Shown here: positions 13,953 to 25,399 of the stretch, piece by piece
Position numbering within the stretch: the first letter of the stretch is position 1
Layout: the number at the start of each line of letters is the position of its first letter
Origin: Persicimonas caeni
GTDB lineage: Bacteria; Myxococcota_A; Bradymonadia; Bradymonadales; Bradymonadaceae
Assembly: GCF_006517175.1 (NCBI RefSeq)
Contig: NZ_CP041186.1
Coordinates: forward strand, 2,879,001 to 2,943,000
DNA: 64,000 nt
Reading direction: 5' to 3'
Notes under the pieces: model-generated
The model's input: only the letters and a program-made list of their open reading frames with translations
The model's database searches: none
What the model was told of the DNA's origin: nothing
Position numbers and translations under genes: made by a program

Positions 13953-15938
13953 ATGAATGGACGATATCAAGCAGCACTGCTGACCATGCTCTTGTGCCTT
14001 GGCCTGTCGGCCACGGCCTTCGCCCAGGTCCCCGCCACGATGACCTACCACGGCAAGCTGACCGACGGCGCCGGCCAACCGGTCGACACCACCGTCGGGG
14101 CGACCTTCCATATCTACGACGCCGCAACCGGCGGCAGTGAAGTATGGTCAGAAGAGTTTTCCACAGTCGATGTGAACAACGGCAGCTTCACCGTCCAGCT
14201 CGGCGCCAACCAGGCGCTCGACAACGTGTTCGACGGCAGCGCCTACTGGCTCGAGATCTCCGTCGACGGCGAGACGCTCAGCCCCAGGACGCCCATCGAG
14301 TCGGTGCCGTACGCGCTGCGCGCCGACAAGGCCAACAAGGCCGACGACGCGGACACGCTCGGCGGCCAGACCGCCTCTGACATCACCGCGGCCGCCCCCT
14401 CGACTGCCGCCGACCTCGCCTACGACAACACCCAGAGTGGGCTGACCGGCTCGGACGTGCAGGCCGCCCTCGACGAGCTCGCCCAGCTTCGCGCACGGGT
14501 CGACGCGCTCGAGGCGAGCATGCAGGATTCGAGCGGCAACGCGGTGACGCTGGCCGACCTAGACGCGCGAATTGCGGCGAACGCGGGTGATATTTCGACG
14601 AATGCCGGCGACATTTCGTCGCTTCAGACGAACGTGTCGACGAACACGAGCGACATCTCCTCGCTGCAGTCCAGCGTGTCGACGAACACGAGCGATATCT
14701 CCTCGCTCCAAACCAACCTGTCGTCGCTGGAAACCACCGTCTCGGGCAACACGACCGATATCTCCTCGCTGCAGTCCAGCGTGTCGGCCAACGCCACTGA
14801 TATTTCCTCGCTGCAGTCCAGCGTCTCCGGAAACACGAGCGATATTGCGACGCTGCAAACCACCGTGTCGGGCAACTCCAGCGACATCGCCTCGTTGCAG
14901 GCCGACGTGGCGAACAACGGGAACGCAATCTCGACGAATTACTCGACCATCGCCGCCAACCAGACCGACATTGCGGCCAACGCCAACGATATCTCGACCA
15001 ACGCCTCGGCCATCGCGACGAATAGCTCGGCCATCGCCACCAGCCAGACCGATATCGCGGCCAACGCCTCGGCCATCGCGACGAATGGCTCGGCCATCGC
15101 CGCCAACCAGACCGATATCGCGGCCAACGCCAGCGATATCTCGACCAATGCTTCGGCCATTGCGACGAATGGCTCGGCCATCGCCACCAACCAGACCGAT
15201 ATTTCGAACAACGAATCGAATATCCAGGCCAACTTCACCGCCATCAGCGCGCTCGAGACGCTGACTCAGGATATGAGTCGCACCACCATCAACGGTCAGC
15301 CGTCGGTAGCGTTTACCGGGGTGAATGTGCATGTGCGCAACGGATTGGGCGCGACGGATGGTGATACCGGCAATGGCCCGCAGGTCAACGGAGTGGGCAA
15401 TTTGGTCGTGGGGTATGATGAGGCGCGGTCCACGAATAGCGACAAGAGTGGGTCGCACAACGTCGTGATCGGCGACGACCACAACTACACCAGCTACGCC
15501 AGCCTCGTCAGTGGCCTCCGGCACAAAGCTACTGCGAAATACTCCACCGTAATTGGCGGCCTTAATAACCATGCGTCCGGCGACTACGCTTTCATCGGAG
15601 GGGGGTACAACCACAGCGCGTCCGGCACCGCCGCAGTGGTCGTCGGAGGGAACGATAGCAAGGCATTGGGCAGCTCGTCCACGGTCGTGGGAGGTTTCGT
15701 CAACACGGCGCACAGTTCAAATTCCACGGTCAGCGGGGGCGACCATAATAATGCGAACGGCTTTATATCCACAATCAGCGGTGGGGCGTATAACACTACA
15801 TCGGGCCGCGCCTCCTCAGTCAGCGGCGGCAGATCCAACACCGCCTCGGGCGACCACTCCTCGGTCAGTGGCGGCAACGGCCGCAGCGCGGGCGGGCCCT
15901 ACGACTGGCGAGCCGGGGGAATCTGGGAGACCGAGTAA
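13953..15938 (+). CDS. Long secreted coiled-coil protein with YadA-like head repeats
   Basis: 661 residues. Signal peptide about 1-24 (AFA/Q). Residues 30-130 form a beta-rich domain (TYHGKLTDGAG, ESVPYALRADKA) common in secreted structural proteins. Residues about 200-420 are a chain of 7- and 14-residue repeats of the type NTSDISSLQSSVS, then NASAIATNGSAIAANQTDI, typical of a trimeric coiled-coil stalk. Residues about 500-655 consist of GNNxASGxxSSVSGG-like repeats as in the left-handed beta-roll head of YadA-family adhesins. The order is reversed relative to trimeric autotransporters (head at the C-terminus) and no membrane anchor follows. A strong hairpin terminator lies downstream. Confidence 0.75.
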   Translation: MNGRYQAALLTMLLCLGLSATAFAQVPATMTYHGKLTDGAGQPVDTTVGATFHIYDAATGGSEVWSEEFSTVDVNNGSFTVQLGANQALDNVFDGSAYWLEISVDGETLSPRTPIESVPYALRADKANKADDADTLGGQTASDITAAAPSTAADLAYDNTQSGLTGSDVQAALDELAQLRARVDALEASMQDSSGNAVTLADLDARIAANAGDISTNAGDISSLQTNVSTNTSDISSLQSSVSTNTSDISSLQTNLSSLETTVSGNTTDISSLQSSVSANATDISSLQSSVSGNTSDIATLQTTVSGNSSDIASLQADVANNGNAISTNYSTIAANQTDIAANANDISTNASAIATNSSAIATSQTDIAANASAIATNGSAIAANQTDIAANASDISTNASAIATNGSAIATNQTDISNNESNIQANFTAISALETLTQDMSRTTINGQPSVAFTGVNVHVRNGLGATDGDTGNGPQVNGVGNLVVGYDEARSTNSDKSGSHNVVIGDDHNYTSYASLVSGLRHKATAKYSTVIGGLNNHASGDYAFIGGGYNHSASGTAAVVVGGNDSKALGSSSTVVGGFVNTAHSSNSTVSGGDHNNANGFISTISGGAYNTTSGRASSVSGGRSNTASGDHSSVSGGNGRSAGGPYDWRAGGIWETE

Positions 15939-16338: not shown

Positions 16339-16741
16339 AAAGGACCATGGGTCCTTCGGCGTCGCGGTCGGGTTGCGTGCAAAAGGACCATGGGTCCTTC
16401 CGCGCGGCGGCCGGGTTGCGATTAGAAGGACCATGCGTCCTTCCGCTTGCGAGCGAGTTGTGTGGAAAAGGACCACGGGTCCTTCAGTGCGGCGGCCCGG
16501 TTGCGTGCAGAAGGACCCTAGGTCCTTCAGTGCGGCGGTGGGATTGTGATCGAAAGGACGCTGGGTCCTTCCGCGTGCGGTCGAGTTGCGTACAGAAGGA
16601 CCCGGGGTCCTTCGGCGCGGCGGTCGGGTTGCGTGCAAAAGGACCGTGGGTCCTTCGGTGCGGCGGTCGGGTCGCGATTGGGAGGACCCTGGGTCCTTCG
16701 GTGCGGCGGTCGGGTTGCGTGCGAAAGGACCCTGGGTCCTT
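16339..16741. repeat. Tandem array of ten palindromes AAGGACCnnnGGTCCTT, period about 43 bp
   Basis: Ten 17-bp palindromes start at 16339, 16382, 16425, 16467, 16511, 16554, 16596, 16639, 16682 and 16725. Spacings are 43, 43, 42, 44, 43, 42, 43, 43 and 43. The arms are almost invariant, while the central triplet varies (ATG, ATG, ATG, ACG, CTA, CTG, CGG, GTG, CTG, CTG). Copies 3, 6 and 9 have one arm mismatch. The about 26-bp linkers are partly conserved (GTGCGGCGGTCGGGTTGCGT type). The period is not a multiple of three, so this is not a coding repeat. It lacks the unique spacers of a CRISPR array. Possible roles: phased protein-binding sites or an RNA hairpin ladder. Confidence 0.95.
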
Positions 16742-16775
16742 CGGCGCCGCGCGGGCGGCTTGCGATTGGACGGCA

Positions 16776-19040: not shown

Positions 19041-19153
19041 AGTCGTGATCGTGATCGTGATCGTGATCGGTTGTTGTCATTCGAGGGGGTGAAACAGCCG
19101 ATCACGATCACGACGACGATCACGATCACGACGACGATCACGATCACGGGATC
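19041..19153. repeat. GATC hexamer array in inverted orientation
   Basis: Eleven GATC sites occur in 107 bp, at 19047, 19053, 19059, 19065, 19100, 19106, 19118, 19124, 19136, 19142 and 19150. The left block is (CGTGAT)n and the right block (GATCAC)n, so the blocks are inverted repeats that can fold into a hairpin around a 31-bp centre. The right block runs into the 3-prime end of the ammonia-lyase gene (stop 19144-19146). It lies between two minus-strand genes. Confidence 0.9.
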
Positions 19154-20712
19154 GTGGGCGTTGTTTTGAGTGCCTTTGCGAGGGACTGGATCTCGGCCGA
19201 CAGTGACCGGTCTTCATCTACGAAGGCGCTGCGCGCCCTCACCCAATGAGCTATATTTTGTGAGCTCTCGCAGAAGTCGTCCCTCTCGAACCCTCCCACC
19301 AATTCGAAGCCCTGCACGAGCACCATCGCCTCGATGGCGAGTACTTCGTAGAGCCGTTCGAGCAGCTGCGAGGCGCGCAGCGCGGAAATGGTGCCCATGG
19401 TGACGACGTCTTGGTTGTTGGCGTTGGTGGGCACCGACTGGATGGAGGCGGGCGACGACTTGGTGCGCATCTCGGCGATGAGGGCGCTGGCGGTGACCTG
19501 CGCGCCCATAAAGCCGCTGTTCAGCCCGGTGTGGTTGCCCTGCATGAAGGCGGGCAGGCCGCCGTTGAGCGTGGGGTCGGTGACGCGGGCGACGGCGCGC
19601 TCGGCGTGCACGGCGAGCTTGATGATGGCGTTGGACAGCGCGTCGGAGGCAAACGAGATGTGCTGGCCGTAGAAGTTGCCGCCGTGGACGACGCGGCCGT
19701 TTTCGACGTCGAAGACGGGGTTGTCGGTCACCGAGTCGAGCTCGCGGGCGACGGTCTGGCCGTGGAAGTCGAGGGTGTCGAGTACGGCGCCGAAGAGCTG
19801 CGGGATACAGCGCAGCGTGTAGGCGTCCTGGGGCAGATCGCGGCCGTGGTCGACGGGGCCGTCGCCAGCCAGATCGAGGCGCGCGGGCTCGTCGGGGATG
19901 GGCTGGAGGCGCGCGCTCGACGCGGAGAGCGCCATCAAGCGCTCGTGGACGCTCCCCTGGCCGGGGTGCGGGCGCAGCCTGCCGAGCAGCGGGTCCCACG
20001 CCTCGCGCCGGCCTTCGAGCAGCTCGGCGTAGAGGACGGCCAGGCGCAGGGCGAGGTCGAAGGCCCTGTCGGTGTCGGTTTGATTGACCAGCGCGAGGCC
20101 GGTCATCGCCGAGGTGCCGTTGACGAGTCCCAGCCCTTCTTTATGGGCGATGTCGAGCGGCTCGAGGCCGACCTCGTCGAAGACCTCGGCCGCCGGACGG
20201 CGTTGGCCGTCGTACATGACGTCGGCCTCGCCCAAGAGCGCCAGGGCCATGTGGGCCAGCGGAGTCAGGTCGCCGCTGGCGCCGACGGTGCCGAGCGAGG
20301 GGATCACCGGCAAAATGTCGTGCTCGAGGCAGTCGAGGATGAGCTCGACGGCCCGCGGCCGCACCGCCGAGGCGCCGCGCGACAGGCTCACCGCCCGAGC
20401 GAACATCAGAGCGCGCACGTAGACCGGGGCGAAGGGCTCTCCGACGCCGGTGGCCAGGTGGTAGATCAGCTTGCGCTGCAGCTCGGCGGACTGGGCGGGG
20501 TCGATATATTGGGTCGCCAGCGGCCCGTAGCCGGTGGTCACGCCGTAGACGCGGCGTTTTTCGGCGACCATGCGGTCGAGCAGCTCGCGCGAGGCGAGCA
20601 TGCGTTCGCGTGCGGCGGGGCTCAGCTCGACGCGGCGGCGGCCGCGAACGACGTCGATGGCTTGTTGGACGGTGACGGAGTGATGCGGGTCGAGTGCGAG
20701 CGCTCGGCTCAT
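19144..20712 (-). CDS. Aromatic amino acid ammonia-lyase, predicted tyrosine ammonia-lyase
   Basis: MIO-dependent lyase that removes ammonia from an aromatic amino acid; tyrosine would give p-coumarate. 522 residues, the usual HAL/TAL length. The MIO-forming Ala-Ser-Gly is at 145-147 in GTVGASGDLTPLAHMA, and the catalytic Tyr56 is in VYGVTTGYGP. The selectivity position is His85-Leu86 (KLIYHLATG), which aligns with H89-L90 of Rhodobacter sphaeroides TAL (NLVHHLASG). Histidase has SH and PAL has FL there. The ATG overlaps the stop of the CoA-ligase gene (ATGA), so both act together. With the PYP-like gene next door, a chromophore pathway is the best reading. Phenylalanine or histidine activity cannot be excluded. 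Confidence 0.85.
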   Translation of the reverse strand: MSRALALDPHHSVTVQQAIDVVRGRRRVELSPAARERMLASRELLDRMVAEKRRVYGVTTGYGPLATQYIDPAQSAELQRKLIYHLATGVGEPFAPVYVRALMFARAVSLSRGASAVRPRAVELILDCLEHDILPVIPSLGTVGASGDLTPLAHMALALLGEADVMYDGQRRPAAEVFDEVGLEPLDIAHKEGLGLVNGTSAMTGLALVNQTDTDRAFDLALRLAVLYAELLEGRREAWDPLLGRLRPHPGQGSVHERLMALSASSARLQPIPDEPARLDLAGDGPVDHGRDLPQDAYTLRCIPQLFGAVLDTLDFHGQTVARELDSVTDNPVFDVENGRVVHGGNFYGQHISFASDALSNAIIKLAVHAERAVARVTDPTLNGGLPAFMQGNHTGLNSGFMGAQVTASALIAEMRTKSSPASIQSVPTNANNQDVVTMGTISALRASQLLERLYEVLAIEAMVLVQGFELVGGFERDDFCESSQNIAHWVRARSAFVDEDRSLSAEIQSLAKALKTTPTIP

Positions 20713-22259
20713 ACAGCTTCCTCGAAGGTGCCGATATCGGGCAACGAGCGCAGCTCGTCGCGAAGAACTTTGCCGGCGCCGTTTCGGGGCAATTCGTCGA
20801 CCACGAAGAGACGCCGGGGACATTTGTACCGCGCCAGAGACTGGGAACAAAACGCCACGATGGCCTCCAGCGAGATTTCGTCGCCCGCATCGTCTTCTTC
20901 GGGGACCACGGCGCAGCAGACCTGCTCGCCCCAGAAGTCGTCGTCGACGCCGAAGACGGCCGCTTCGGCGACGCCCGGCATCTGCCCGAGGACGCGCTCG
21001 ACCTCGGCCGGGTACACGTTTTCGCCGCCGGTGATGATCATGTCGCGGCGCCGGCCGACGATCGTGTAGCGGCCGTCTGCGTCCTGCCGGGCGATGTCGC
21101 CGCTGTGGAACCACCCGCAGCGAAGAGCGCGGGCGGTCGCCTGCGGGTTTCGCCAGTAGCCCTTCATGACGTTCGGGCCGCGCAGGATGAGCTCGCCGGC
21201 CTCGCCGGGCGCGACGTCGCGCCCCTCGTCGTCGACGATGCGCACGTCGACGAACTCGCCGGGAACGCCCACCGAACCGGCGTGCTCGACGGCGTCGCGT
21301 GGGCCGAGCAACGTGGCCATCGGCCCCGCTTCGGTCATGCCGTAGCCCTGCATGAGCGTCACGTCGTGCTCGGCCCACGCCCGGATAAGTTCGGGCGGGC
21401 ACGGCGCACCGCCGACGACGCCGCCTTTGAATTTCCCCATGGATTGGGCCAAGCCACTGTCAGCCTCCGCCTTGGAAAGACTGTCGAGCAAAGCCCGCCA
21501 CATCGTGGGGACCATGAACGCGCAGGTCGCGCCGGAGTCTCGGATGTGGGCGAGCGCCAGGTCGGGCTGGAAGCTCGGCACTAAAATGCTCGTGCCCCCG
21601 GCGAGCAGCAGCGGCCAGGTGAGCACGTTCAGCCCGGCGACGTGGAACATCGGGGCGGCTGCGTAGTTGATGTCGTCGGCTCCGAAGGGCAACTCCTGCA
21701 GGAATTGGGCGTGATTCCACAGCAGGTTGGCGTGGGTGTGCACGGCGCCGCGCGGGGTGCCTGTGCTTCCGCTGGTGTAGACGATGAGCGCCGGAGTCTC
21801 GGGGCCCGCCGGGGCATCCGTGGGCGACGCCAATGTATCGGCCACCATGTGGGTGACGGAATCGTCGAGTGGGACGTCGGCGTCGATCAGCATCACGGCG
21901 CTCGACAGCGCCGCCTCGAAGGCGAGCGTGGCGGTGCGCATCTCGTAGAACATCACGGCCGGGTCGGCATCCTCGATGACCGCGGCCAGCTCGACGGGGG
22001 CCAGCCGGTGGTTGAGCGGGACGAAGACCGCGCCGCGTAGCGCGCACGCGGCCTGCAGGGTGACCAGCGCGATGCGGTTGGGCATGAGCGCTGCGACGCG
22101 GTCGCCCGCGCCGATGTCGAGCCCGGCGAGTTGGGCGGCGCGTGTCTTCGTCATTCGCCACAGCTCGGCGTAGGTGACCTGACGCTCCGGCTCGATGAGC
22201 GCGATCTTGTCGGGGCGTGTGTGGGCGTGGTGTTTGAGCCAGTCGCTGCTGAGGAGCAT
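20709..22259 (-). CDS. Acyl/aryl-CoA ligase, predicted p-coumarate:CoA ligase
   Basis: ANL-superfamily enzyme that adenylates a carboxylate and transfers it to CoA. The 516 residues carry the full motif set: YTSGSTGTPRG (phosphate loop), GYGMTEAG, GWFHSGDIA, the hinge region GRRRDMIITGG and the catalytic lysine in LPRNGAGK. Sequence alone gives a broad ligase class. The 4-bp overlap with a predicted tyrosine ammonia-lyase gene points to p-coumarate as substrate, giving p-coumaroyl-CoA. The upstream leader is C-rich (CCCCAAACCCC) with no clear ribosome site. Divergent from the PYP-cyclase gene, with which it shares a 189-bp promoter region. Confidence 0.85.
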   Translation of the reverse strand: MLLSSDWLKHHAHTRPDKIALIEPERQVTYAELWRMTKTRAAQLAGLDIGAGDRVAALMPNRIALVTLQAACALRGAVFVPLNHRLAPVELAAVIEDADPAVMFYEMRTATLAFEAALSSAVMLIDADVPLDDSVTHMVADTLASPTDAPAGPETPALIVYTSGSTGTPRGAVHTHANLLWNHAQFLQELPFGADDINYAAAPMFHVAGLNVLTWPLLLAGGTSILVPSFQPDLALAHIRDSGATCAFMVPTMWRALLDSLSKAEADSGLAQSMGKFKGGVVGGAPCPPELIRAWAEHDVTLMQGYGMTEAGPMATLLGPRDAVEHAGSVGVPGEFVDVRIVDDEGRDVAPGEAGELILRGPNVMKGYWRNPQATARALRCGWFHSGDIARQDADGRYTIVGRRRDMIITGGENVYPAEVERVLGQMPGVAEAAVFGVDDDFWGEQVCCAVVPEEDDAGDEISLEAIVAFCSQSLARYKCPRRLFVVDELPRNGAGKVLRDELRSLPDIGTFEEAV

Positions 22260-22448
22260 GGGTGGGTAGGGGGTTGGGGTTTGGGGGCCTATGGCCTTGG
22301 TCTTGGATTAGATGCGGTGGGGGTGGGGGGAGTTACATGGGTGGGTTCGCGTGGGGCGAAGGAAAAATTCGCGTGTAACGCATTGTGGTGGCGTTGCATC
22401 TGAGGAATGCACTGCATCTAAGGCGACACGCTGCATATCGGAGTTCGT
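22260..22448. promoter_or_regulatory. Divergent promoter region between ligase/lyase operon and PYP-cyclase gene
   Basis: 189 bp hold both promoters. A direct repeat is visible: TGCATCTGAGG (22395-22405) and TGCATCTAAGG (22413-22423), 18 bp apart, followed by TGCAT at 22432. The core GCATCTAAG recurs before the bilin reductase gene (25834) and, inverted, upstream of the XRE regulator gene (30813). CGGAG lies 6 bases before the ATG at 22449. The repeat may be the operator of a shared regulator. Confidence 0.5.
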
Positions 22449-23486
22449 ATGACGCATTACAAAAAGCCCGACCTCGAGCCTGCCATCCTGGAGGCTTGCC
22501 TCGACCAGCTTCCCATCGGCGCGATCCTCGTCGACGACGAGGGTGTCATCAAGCGGTTCAATCGCTACGAGGAGCAGCTTTCGGGGCGGTCGCGCGAGAA
22601 GGTCATCGGGCGCTCGTTCTTCTCCGATGTGGCGCCGTGCACCAACGATATCGAGCTGGGCGCCCGCTTTCGGGAGGGGATCGAAGACGGAAACCTCGAC
22701 ATCGATATCGAGTTCAGCTTTCCGTACCCGTACAACCGCGTGGCCCGCGACGTGCGCATCCGGGCGACCTCGGTGCACGGCCAAGAGGACCATATCAACC
22801 TGGTCCTCATCGAGGAGATCACCAGCCGGCGCGAGCTCGAGCGTAACAACCAGACGATGATGGCGAGCCTGCGGGCAATGATCGGCGCCGACGCGGTCGG
22901 GGACGCCGACGAGCGGAAACCGGCCGCCACGGTGACCCGCCAGAAGGCAGTGTGCCTGCTGGCAGACTTGTCGAGCTATGCGTCCGTGGCTCGCGAGGTG
23001 GCGCCCGACGAGCTGTTCGGCCTGCTCGATGGGCGCATTCGTCGCGCCGTGGCCGCCATCCACCGCTACGGCGGACATATCGACGAGATCACCGGCGAGG
23101 CGGTGCGGGCCTACTTCGTCATCGAGGAGCGTGAGGAGGTGCACAACCAAGCCTTCTTCAACGCCCTTCGGGCCGCGCGCGACATCACCGGAGAGCGAGG
23201 CGACGCCGAGTTCGAGCTGCCCTTCCGGGTGGGCATCGCCAGCGGCGAAGTCATCCAGGGGCAGCTGGGACGCGACGAGTTCTCCCAAAAGGCGACGGTG
23301 GGGGCGGCCTTTACCGCCGCCAGTCGCCTCGCCTCATTGGCCGGCGAGGCGCAGACGATGATGGCCGCCGACGTCGAGGAGCGCGTGCGTGAGTCGGTGG
23401 GCACCAGCGAGGTGCCGCGCATGCCCATTGTGGGCCTCGATGAAGTCTGGCCGGTCTATCGCCTCGAGCGAGTCGACCTTCCCTGA
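22449..23486 (+). CDS. Photoactive yellow protein domain fused to class III nucleotide-cyclase domain
   Basis: 345 residues, probably cytosolic. Residues 10-124 align with Halorhodospira halophila PYP at a constant offset of 5 through at least residue 93, with no gap. C64 equals C69 (p-coumaroyl thioester site, DVAPCT), E41 equals E46, R47 equals R52, S45 equals T50 and F37 replaces Y42; the following FREGIEDGNL also matches. A helical linker (125-160) leads to a class III cyclase fold (165-330). There Asp173 is kept, but the other metal Asp is Glu217, the substrate Lys is Glu213, the adenine Asp is Ala286 and the Asn is Thr289, while Arg293 is kept. Output activity is thus uncertain. Divergent lyase/ligase genes could supply the chromophore. 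Confidence 0.88.
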   Translation: MTHYKKPDLEPAILEACLDQLPIGAILVDDEGVIKRFNRYEEQLSGRSREKVIGRSFFSDVAPCTNDIELGARFREGIEDGNLDIDIEFSFPYPYNRVARDVRIRATSVHGQEDHINLVLIEEITSRRELERNNQTMMASLRAMIGADAVGDADERKPAATVTRQKAVCLLADLSSYASVAREVAPDELFGLLDGRIRRAVAAIHRYGGHIDEITGEAVRAYFVIEEREEVHNQAFFNALRAARDITGERGDAEFELPFRVGIASGEVIQGQLGRDEFSQKATVGAAFTAASRLASLAGEAQTMMAADVEERVRESVGTSEVPRMPIVGLDEVWPVYRLERVDLP

Positions 23487-23554
23487 AGTTTCGCGCGGGC
23501 AACACGCCGCCGGCTACCTTTTTCGAGCACCAGTCTCGAGCACAAGGCTTGAAA

Positions 23555-25399
23555 GTGAGCACGCAAACGCGAACAACGACGACCATCGAACCGGGCGCGA
23601 CGTTGATGGGGCGCTACGTCATCGAGGGCTGTCTGGGGAGCGGAGGCATGGGCAAGGTGTACCTGGCCCGCCAGCACCCGTTCGACCGCAAAGTCGTCAT
23701 CAAGGTCATGCACGATCGGCACGTGGCCAACGACCAGTTGCGCCAGCGCTTTTTCAACGAGGCGCAGGCGGCAAGCCAGCTGTCGCACCCCAACACGATC
23801 ACGGTCTACGACTTCGGTGAGGCCGACGACGGCATGCACTTCATCGTCATGGAGTACGTCGACGGGCGCTCGCTGCTCGAAGAGCTCAACGACAACGGGC
23901 CGATGTCGGTGGCGCGTGCGGTCCCGCTGGTCGTGCAGGTCGCCCAGAGCTTGGGCGAGGCGCACCGAAAGGGGATCATCCACCGCGACCTGAAGCTCGA
24001 GAATATCATGATCTCGGCGGTCGGCTCGGGCGACGAGTTCGCCAAGGTGCTCGACTTCGGGATCGCCAAGCTCACCGAGAAGAAGGTGGGGCTGACCCAG
24101 ACGGGCTCGGTGTTCGGCACGCCGGGGTATATGCCGCCCGAGCAGGCCAACGGAAACGACAAGATCGACGCCACCGCCGATCTGTACGCGCTGACTTGCT
24201 GCCTGTACGAGTTGCTCACAGGCCGGCTGCCGTTCGAGGGGGAGTCGGCGTTGGCGGTCCTGATGAAGCATCAGACCGACCCGCCTCCCAGTCTGCCCGA
24301 CCATCTGCCGCGGCGCCTCGACGCGTTCATCAAGCGCGGCATGGCCAAGCAGCCGCGCCATCGGCCCCAGAGCGCCGACGAGTATATCGCCGGGCTGCTC
24401 GCCTGTTTCGTCGACCGCGACAAAGCCGCCGGTCGGCGCAGGCCGCGCGAATCGTCGTCGTCGCACCCGAACATCGCGAGTGCGCAGACCAATGAAGGTA
24501 CGCCACCGGGACCGAAGACCACCCGCCGAAAGGCGTCGGATGTGCACTCGCGGCCGACGATGCAGTCGCCGGTGCCCCAGCAGAAGCTCGATCGCGCCGC
24601 GATGGACGACCTGGGTCGAGCCAAGACGGCCTCGGGCGAGCACGACAGTATGTCGCCCAGGTTGCCGACGCCCCAGCCGAGTCCGAGTACCCCGGTGCCG
24701 CGTCTCGAGAAGAGGGAGCTGACAGGTGAGCCGACGCACGAGACGGGCCGAGACGTGTCCGAATCGCGCCCGGGCACTGGCGCTCGACCTGGCGAGCCGA
24801 CCGACACGCGCGTCCCTCTAAGCTGGGTGGTCGCCGGCGGGTCGGTGCTCGTCGCTACCGGCGCTCTTCTCTTTGCCTTCAACAGCGCCCCCGAGCCCGC
24901 CCGCCCCTCCGCCAGCGCGGCAGCGACGAAGACGCCCGCCAAAGTCGAGCTGACCGTGGTGAGCGAGCCCGAGCGCGCCAGCATCTTCGCCGACGGCCAG
25001 CGCGTGGGGATCACCCCGGCAACGCTGAGCTTCGACGACGGCGAGACTGTCGACCTGCGCATCGAAAAGAGAGGGTTCCGCCCCGAGACGTTCGATGACT
25101 ACAGAGTCGGCACCGCCGCCGACGGAAAGCTCGTGGTGCCGCTGGAGGCGGCCACGATCACCGTCACGGTGACCTCCCCGGATGCCGACGGCGAAGTGCT
25201 CGTCAACGGTGAATCGTTCGGAAGTCTGTTGGCGGGAGCGAGCCGTCGACTCGAGGTGAGCTGGCCGAAAGACGCGTTGGAGGTGCGCATTCGCTACGCC
25301 GACCGCGCTGACTACGTCGAGCGCATCCCCGCAGGGGCGATCTCGACCGACGTCGAAATCGCCCCTGCGGCCGATGAAGCGCTGGGGGCGAAGAAGTAG
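23555..25399 (+). CDS. Hanks-type Ser/Thr protein kinase with TM segment and PEGA domain
   Basis: 614 residues from the GTG at 23555, which has AAGG seven bases upstream; a TTG two codons earlier is the alternative. Kinase residues: GSGGMGKVY at 28-36, Lys50, HRDLKLEN at 143-150, DFG at 167-169 and GTPGYMPPEQ. A long Pro/Ser-rich linker (about 285-415) leads to one membrane helix (about 427-447), then a PEGA domain (about 465-530) outside the membrane. This is a normal bacterial receptor-kinase plan. The gene starts 68 bp after the PYP-cyclase gene on the same strand, so co-transcription is likely and it may be the output kinase. Its stop is four bases from that of the ferredoxin gene. Confidence 0.9.
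   Translation: MSTQTRTTTTIEPGATLMGRYVIEGCLGSGGMGKVYLARQHPFDRKVVIKVMHDRHVANDQLRQRFFNEAQAASQLSHPNTITVYDFGEADDGMHFIVMEYVDGRSLLEELNDNGPMSVARAVPLVVQVAQSLGEAHRKGIIHRDLKLENIMISAVGSGDEFAKVLDFGIAKLTEKKVGLTQTGSVFGTPGYMPPEQANGNDKIDATADLYALTCCLYELLTGRLPFEGESALAVLMKHQTDPPPSLPDHLPRRLDAFIKRGMAKQPRHRPQSADEYIAGLLACFVDRDKAAGRRRPRESSSSHPNIASAQTNEGTPPGPKTTRRKASDVHSRPTMQSPVPQQKLDRAAMDDLGRAKTASGEHDSMSPRLPTPQPSPSTPVPRLEKRELTGEPTHETGRDVSESRPGTGARPGEPTDTRVPLSWVVAGGSVLVATGALLFAFNSAPEPARPSASAAATKTPAKVELTVVSEPERASIFADGQRVGITPATLSFDDGETVDLRIEKRGFRPETFDDYRVGTAADGKLVVPLEAATITVTVTSPDADGEVLVNGESFGSLLAGASRRLEVSWPKDALEVRIRYADRADYVERIPAGAISTDVEIAPAADEALGAKK

What the first reader, a model, noticed from the sequence alone, without database searches (positions are those of the whole stretch)
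19144..22259. Overlapping ammonia-lyase and CoA-ligase genes form a p-coumaroyl-CoA pathway next to the PYP gene
The ammonia-lyase carries the MIO Ala-Ser-Gly and His85-Leu86 at the selectivity site (as in R. sphaeroides TAL H89-L90). The ligase gene overlaps it by 4 bp. p-Coumaroyl-CoA is the precursor from which PYP obtains its thioester chromophore, and the divergent gene encodes the PYP domain. This makes a self-contained chromophore cassette outside the phototrophs in which PYP was first found.
Basis: partly seen in the sequence, partly recalled or inferred. Interest (0 to 1): 0.85.

Follow-up and report, generated by a model that had tools for sequence, protein, structure and literature searches.

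The report
PYP light-sensor chromophore cassette with kinase
A predatory salt-loving bacterium carries, beside a gene for a blue-light sensor, the two enzymes that should make that sensor's pigment from tyrosine; this trio is a known kind, but the sensor is joined to a broken-looking cyclase and sits next to a protein kinase, an arrangement that we did not find described.

Summary
Window 19144-20712(-) encodes a 522-aa MIO ammonia-lyase (Ala145-Ser146-Gly147, His85-Leu86). Its start overlaps the end of a 516-aa acyl-CoA ligase (20709-22259, -) by 4 bp, and both lie divergent from a PYP gene (22449-23486, +). The lyase groups with R. sphaeroides TAL (99/96). In the family (Bradymonadaceae, 21 genomes) such lyases occur only in the 4 genomes with a clear PYP, always beside it. 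In one of them the pair serves a different PYP type. So p-coumaroyl-CoA supply for PYP is very likely, although the ligase's substrate cannot be read from sequence. TAL-ligase-PYP clusters, and PYP in non-phototrophs, are already published.

The PYP protein is fused to a class III cyclase fold that has lost catalytic residues, and a Ser/Thr kinase gene follows. That kinase has its two best matches, among 237 kinase matches in 7 genomes, exactly beside the two other PYP-cyclase fusions. Outside this group, 7 of 54 PYP genes (all PYP-V4R) also have a Ser/Thr kinase gene immediately upstream. I propose light-to-Ser/Thr-kinase signalling through a pseudocyclase: a new variant of a known kind, untested biochemically.

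The parts
19144..20712 (-). Tyrosine ammonia-lyase (TAL), 522 aa, MIO Ala145-Ser146-Gly147, His85-Leu86
   Evidence: ORF and ATGA overlap; PF00221 524 bits; best solved relative R. sphaeroides TAL 2o6y, E 1e-118; HL pair and Gln in TNANNQD; clade with RsTAL 99/96
20709..22259 (-). Acyl-CoA ligase, probable 4-coumarate:CoA ligase (pCL), 516 aa
   Evidence: PF00501/PF13193; best solved relatives 8weu and 8wev (feruloyl-CoA synthetase), E 2e-100; no NCBIfam model over its cut-off among the 25 best shown; substrate inferred from linkage
22260..22448 (.). Divergent intergenic region, 189 bp, G-rich on the + strand near the ligase start; expected to hold both promoters
   Evidence: sequence read; function inferred
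22449..23486 (+). PYP-pseudocyclase fusion protein, 345 aa
   Evidence: TIGR02373 93.6 bits; weak PF00211 19.6 bits, below its cut-off of 21.9; AlphaFold2 mean pLDDT 87.6; Foldseek hits to CyaB and PYP
22482..22823 (+). PYP domain, residues about 12-125: F37 (Hhal 42), E41 (46), S45 (50), R47 (52), C64 (69)
   Evidence: ungapped alignment to PYP structures, offset 5; F37, E41, S45 and C64 kept in all three fusion proteins
22821..22883 (+). Helix 125-145 linking the PYP domain to the cyclase fold
   Evidence: secondary structure of the model
22926..23468 (+). Class III cyclase-like domain, residues about 160-340, with catalytic residues replaced (K to E213, D to E217, D to A286, N to T289; D173 and R293 kept)
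23549..25399 (+). Ser/Thr protein kinase with one PEGA domain, 616 aa (TTG start uncertain), proposed output partner
   Evidence: PF00069 163.5 bits, PEGA 26.7 bits; its two best non-self matches in 7 genomes lie beside the two other PYP-cyclase genes

Best explanation
The lyase makes p-coumarate from tyrosine. The translationally coupled ligase turns it into p-coumaroyl-CoA, which loads Cys64 (Hhal Cys69) of the divergently encoded PYP domain. Blue light then changes the PYP domain, and the change passes along the linking helix to a class III cyclase fold that has lost catalytic residues. That domain most likely acts as a binding or allosteric module, not as an enzyme, and controls the Ser/Thr kinase encoded next. 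Shown here: the genes, the TAL-type residues and clade, the conserved neighbourhood, the lost catalytic residues, and the specific co-travel of the kinase. Inferred: TAL and ligase activities, chromophore loading, light response, lack of cyclase activity, and control of the kinase.
For: TAL: His85-Leu86, HGGNF and NQD residues as in RsTAL; in the 31 of 44 relatives' lyase matches examined, 4 have HL, 26 SH, 1 FH; tree 99/96. Cassette role: TAL beside PYP in 4 of 4 family genomes with a clear PYP, and no close TAL in the other 17; in G007 the TAL-ligase pair stands beside a different PYP type (Roadblock-linked), so PYP is the shared partner. Fusion: full-length matches in 3 of 377 phylum genomes only. 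Pseudocyclase: the Asn is lost in 3 of 3 (16 of 19 comparators keep it), the Arg in 2 of 3 (19 of 19 keep it), the second metal Asp in 2 of 3 (19 of 19), the Lys in 2 of 3 (16 of 19). Kinase: the two best non-self matches among 237 (356 and 315 bits; next 227) are the kinases beside PYP-cyclase in G015 and G016; congeners without PYP (G003, G013, G018) lack such a kinase. Parallel: 7 of 54 other PYP genes, all PYP-V4R, have a kinase gene directly upstream on the same strand.
Against: The ligase does not group firmly with the other PYP-linked ligases (27% of bootstrap trees), and similar ligases occur in genomes without PYP. G016 has no ligase nearby and none under E 1e-70. Tyr42 is Phe, which perturbs H. 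halophila PYP, although about 9% of PYPs have it (PMC12826048 section 5, PMC9664959 section 6). The cyclase domain of G015 keeps Lys and both metal Asp, so residual activity or a heterodimer is not excluded. Ser/Thr kinases are abundant (55 matches in this genome). No experiment.
Confidence: 0.62

Rival explanations
1. The cassette feeds PYP, but the fusion is a working light-regulated nucleotide cyclase with unusual catalytic residues, or works as half of a heterodimer with another cyclase, giving cAMP or cGMP; the kinase is only a neighbour.
For: Clear class III fold (CyaB TMt 0.81); first metal Asp kept in 3 of 3, and G015 keeps Lys and the second Asp.
Against: The catalytic Asn is lost in 3 of 3 and the Arg in 2 of 3; the Pfam score is below the cut-off; the kinase co-travels specifically.
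Confidence: 0.15
2. The lyase and ligase belong to aromatic acid metabolism (a phenylpropanoid pathway) and lie beside PYP by chance or for co-regulation only.
For: The ligase belongs to a broad family also found in genomes without PYP; p-coumaroyl-CoA has other uses (established knowledge).
Against: TAL is beside PYP in 4 of 4 genomes and with two PYP types; in the window no other gene lies between ligase and PYP.
Confidence: 0.07
3. The PYP domain has become a non-photochemical sensor (Phe at 42) and the cassette is a relic.
For: Phe at position 42 in all three fusions.
Against: Cys, Glu46, Ser50 and Arg52 are kept in the window protein; TAL active-site residues are intact; Y42F in H. halophila PYP changes hydrogen bonding and absorbance, not chromophore binding, as PMC9664959 section 6 describes it.
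Confidence: 0.06

Closest known systems
Halorhodospira halophila pyp-pCL-TAL operon
   Same: PYP with adjacent pCL and TAL making its p-coumaroyl-CoA (PMC12826048 section 8)
   Different: Here TAL and ligase are divergent from PYP, PYP is fused to a cyclase fold and followed by a Ser/Thr kinase, and the host is probably a predatory non-phototroph
Rhodobacter sphaeroides tyrosine ammonia-lyase (2o6y)
   Same: Best solved relative; same His-Leu pair and clade
   Different: The window lyase keeps the family features but is a diverged enzyme of Bradymonadaceae
Ppr and Ppd (PYP-phytochrome-histidine kinase or GGDEF/EAL) and other multidomain PYPs
   Same: N-terminal PYP as input of a signalling protein; a Ppr structure (1mzu) is the best solved match of the PYP domain
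   Different: No phytochrome, histidine kinase or GGDEF; a class III cyclase fold instead, absent from the domain list of PMC12826048 section 6 and Table 2
PYP-V4R proteins
   Same: PYP at the N-terminus with a C-terminal domain that is no known relay and, in 7 loci here, a neighbouring Ser/Thr kinase gene
   Different: V4R is not a cyclase fold; there the kinase is upstream, here downstream
OaPAC and bPAC photoactivated adenylate cyclases
   Same: Blue-light sensor fused to a class III cyclase domain; OaPAC matches in sequence and fold
   Different: Those use a flavin BLUF sensor (recalled) and are active enzymes; here the sensor is PYP and catalytic residues are replaced

Membership tests
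Tyrosine ammonia-lyase (MIO family) | MIO-forming Ala-Ser-Gly | tested here: met
   Ala145-Ser146-Gly147
Tyrosine ammonia-lyase (MIO family) | His-Leu selectivity pair as in RsTAL His89-Leu90 | tested here: met
   His85-Leu86 aligned to the RsTAL column
Tyrosine ammonia-lyase (MIO family) | Groups with a proven TAL and not with HAL | tested here: met
   99/96 with RsTAL, 33 rows; one reference TAL only
Tyrosine ammonia-lyase (MIO family) | Prefers tyrosine in an assay | not testable with these tools
   needs purified enzyme
4-coumarate:CoA ligase of PYP | AMP-forming acyl-CoA ligase domains | tested here: met
4-coumarate:CoA ligase of PYP | Forms a clade with other PYP-linked ligases | tested here: inconclusive
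   27% of bootstrap trees, 14 rows
4-coumarate:CoA ligase of PYP | Uses p-coumarate | not testable with these tools
   needs assay
PYP family (Cys69-bearing, PMC9664959) | Cys69 | tested here: met
   Cys64, ungapped offset 5
PYP family (Cys69-bearing, PMC9664959) | Glu46 and Tyr42, at least one kept | tested here: met
   Glu41 kept; Tyr42 is Phe37
PYP family (Cys69-bearing, PMC9664959) | Over the TIGR02373 cut-off | tested here: not met
   93.6 bits against 143; only 1 of 377 phylum genomes passes. PMC9664959 section 6 says that this model's seed holds only four PYP homologs, so I do not treat this cut-off as defining
Class III nucleotide cyclase | Cyclase fold | tested here: met
   CyaB 3r5g TMt 0.81
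Class III nucleotide cyclase | Two metal Asp, Lys/Asp, Asn/Arg (roles recalled) | tested here: not met
   window keeps one Asp and the Arg; Asn lost in 3 of 3 fusions
Ser/Thr protein kinase as PYP partner | Specific conserved linkage | tested here: met
   3 of 3 PYP-cyclase loci
Ser/Thr protein kinase as PYP partner | Physical contact or light-dependent activity | not testable with these tools
   needs experiment

The most novel reading that the evidence does not exclude
PYP in Myxococcota signals through Ser/Thr kinases: a PYP-pseudocyclase in Bradymonadaceae and, separately, PYP-V4R proteins elsewhere pass blue light to a neighbouring Ser/Thr kinase without making a second messenger. The TAL-ligase pair is a movable chromophore supply shared between unrelated PYP pathways.
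Probability: 0.45. Interest if true: 0.75.

Novelty: new variant of a known kind. Interest (0 to 1): 0.52.

Why it matters
How PYP passes its signal on is an open gap named in the 2025 survey (PMC12826048 abstract). A kinase gene that travels with a PYP fusion gives a concrete, testable output, and the same pairing recurs with PYP-V4R proteins, for which that survey (section 6) noted no apparent relay domain. The host is probably a predator from a saltern, and the passages that I read about it mention no light sensing.

Tried and rejected
Histidine ammonia-lyase as the identity of the window lyase: rejected by residues and tree; the best NCBIfam model is a HAL model (467 bits), but below its cut-off of 524, and a separate HAL-like gene exists at 3.53 Mb.

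Active photoactivated cyclase: considered, made unlikely by the lost residues, not excluded.

PYP-V4R C-terminal extensions as hidden cyclase domains: rejected; Pfam finds V4R in 7 of 7.

TAL near other Myxococcota PYPs: no hit at 50 bits or more in 51 fetched neighbourhoods covering 54 PYP matches outside the five Bradymonadia genomes, several cut short by contig ends; one ligase (L173).

Prey-derived tyrosine as the only source for the chromophore: the idea came from a passage of PMC7460792 that all genomes lacked a complete tyrosine pathway, but a PDH_N match over its cut-off exists here, so I dropped it.

PYP-cyclase in other species: one scan of genome contigs found only G015's contig (L022); it did not return G016, so its reach is small.

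Ligase tree: with and without the G015 ligase the answer differs (93/97 for two ligases, 27% for three); I count it as inconclusive. One search had dropped the G015 and G370 ligases because my motif did not match.
Full report
What is there. On the minus strand, 20709-22259 encodes a 516-aa AMP-forming acyl-CoA ligase and 20712-19144 a 522-aa aromatic ammonia-lyase whose ATG overlaps the ligase's stop by 4 bp. On the plus strand, 22449-23486 encodes a 345-aa protein with an N-terminal PYP domain, and 23549-25399 a Ser/Thr kinase with a PEGA domain.

Organism. The window's genome is one contig of 8,047,206 bases. Persicimonas caeni YN101, a predator from a solar saltern, has a chromosome reported as 8,047,306 bp (PMC7188933, search listing and passages), and a relative in the same family, G008, is 5,045,683 bases, the size reported for Bradymonas sediminis FA350. 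G015's contig is titled Bradymonadaceae. I therefore take the family to be Bradymonadaceae and the organism to be P. caeni or very near it; this is inference.

Lyase. Its best solved relative is R. sphaeroides TAL 2o6y, deposited as 'putative histidine ammonia-lyase' (E 1e-118; that it is the TAL is recalled). In 31 of the 44 lyase matches from 57 relatives, the four PYP-linked lyases have His-Leu at the selectivity site, 26 have Ser-His and 1 Phe-His. The four, like RsTAL, also have Asn-Gln-Asp where 26 have Arg-Glu-Asp or Met-Glu-Asp; the Phe-His lyase and SgTAM also have Asn-Gln-Asp. A 33-row tree puts the four with RsTAL, support 99/96; branches are long and there is one reference TAL. The same genome has another lyase with the Ser-His pair at 3.53 Mb.

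Co-occurrence. Among 57 relatives, strong PYP matches (E under 1e-20) occur in five genomes: the window's own, G007, G015 and G016 of the same family (21 genomes) and G051 of another family. The close lyase is beside the PYP gene in the first four; G051 has none. In the 17 other family members the best lyase is at most 39% identical, or there is none. In 377 phylum genomes the four are again the only His-Leu lyases among 30 loci examined; 25 are Ser-His and one (L099) did not match my motif. The ligase is beside the lyase in the window, G015 and G007, but not in G016.

Two PYP types share the cassette. G007's PYP is not the fusion: it follows a Roadblock/LC7 protein and an unknown protein. The window's genome has this same kind of cluster at another place, 6.8 Mb, without TAL or ligase near. 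The TAL-ligase pair thus stands beside one type in the window and another in G007, which fits chromophore supply.

The PYP protein. Aligned without gaps to PYP structures (offset 5), it has Cys at 69, Glu at 46, Phe at 42, Ser at 50 and Arg at 52. Phe42 is found in about 9% of PYPs (PMC12826048 section 5; PMC9664959 section 6, both read). The C-terminal part is a class III cyclase fold: weak Pfam match below cut-off, sequence matches to adenylate cyclases and OaPAC, AlphaFold2 model with mean pLDDT 87.6 and pTM 0.57 from a 32-row alignment, Foldseek best match P. aeruginosa CyaB, TMt 0.81, and PYP, TMt 0.77. Domain orientation is uncertain. Against 19 Myxococcota cyclase domains, the three fusions (window, G015, G016) have D,D,D for the first metal Asp (19 of 19 D); E,K,E for the Lys (16 of 19 K); E,D,Q for the second Asp (19 of 19 D); T,T,L for the Asn (16 of 19 N); R,K,A for the Arg (19 of 19 R). 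Residue roles are recalled. I read this as a pseudocyclase. Full-length relatives appear in 3 of 377 phylum genomes.

The kinase. In 7 genomes, 237 matches to the window kinase pass E 1e-40. The best two besides itself are the kinases directly after the PYP-cyclase genes of G015 (53%, 356 bits) and G016 (52%, 315 bits); the next is at 227 bits. G003 (same genus as G015) and G013 and G018 (same genus as G016) lack PYP and such a kinase; G007, whose PYP has no cyclase domain, lacks such a kinase too. Gene order is PYP-cyclase then kinase in 3 of 3; in G015 the ligase and TAL follow in the same direction.

A wider parallel. PYP occurs in 44 of 377 phylum genomes, 60 matches. For the 54 matches outside the five Bradymonadia genomes I fetched 51 neighbourhoods of up to 17 kb. 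No TAL scored 50 bits or more and one ligase was found. In 7 a kinase gene ends within 103 bases of the PYP domain on the same strand, and all 7 PYPs carry V4R. An eighth V4R-bearing PYP (L164) has no such kinase in view. The 7 may be one inherited arrangement, and kinases are common, so this is support, not proof.

Comparison with what is published. PMC9664959 (abstract, sections 6, 7 and 9, passages) and PMC12826048 (abstract, sections 5, 6 and 8, passages) describe PYP-TAL-pCL neighbourhoods (at least 10% and 30% of functional PYP genes in the first; 7 and 42 instances among 113 predicted operons in the second), PYP in Myxococcota and other phyla, and multidomain PYPs with phytochrome, histidine kinase, GGDEF/EAL, V4R, MCP and REC. 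In neither main text did my word searches and reading show a class III cyclase fusion, Roadblock or MerR with PYP, or a Ser/Thr kinase partner; the one mention of a serine threonine kinase is fern PHY3. Searches for PYP with threonine protein kinase or nucleotide cyclase and a broader one showed no such report in the listings. The supplements of both papers were not readable here, and most subscription papers are not held.

Verdict. The fusion and its kinase make it a new variant. I put 0.9 on TAL plus ligase supplying PYP and about 0.6 on the whole chain including the kinase.

Noticed in passing
L018:5520-7923; L021:6830-9069; L017:7272-9420: A second conserved PYP cluster in Bradymonadia: Roadblock/LC7 protein, an unknown protein of about 370 aa (matched in L021, not in L017) and an N-terminally extended PYP.
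   Followed up: partly
L170, L171, L173, L174, L175, L177, L178 (centre): Ser/Thr kinase gene directly upstream of a PYP-V4R gene in 7 of 54 PYP matches outside Bradymonadia.
   Followed up: partly
L158:7642-9020; L162:7770-8390: PYP proteins with an N-terminal MerR-type or HTH_17 DNA-binding domain, two in tandem in L158 (Pfam; for L162 only read from the sequence of L031): a possible direct light-to-transcription link.
   Followed up: no
window 16339-16764: About 10 tandem copies of a 43-bp unit, each with a palindrome like AAGGACC..GGTCCTT.
   Followed up: no
window 22260-22345: Runs of G on the + strand just before the ligase start, without a clear ribosome-binding site for the ligase.
   Followed up: no
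window 14567-15245, inside ORF 13953-15938(+): A long array of related 21-, 42-, 63- and 84-bp repeats in a secreted-looking repeat protein.
   Followed up: no
L179, L181, L186, L189, L197: PYP proteins with a C-terminal extension of about 204-218 aa with no Pfam match there.
   Followed up: no
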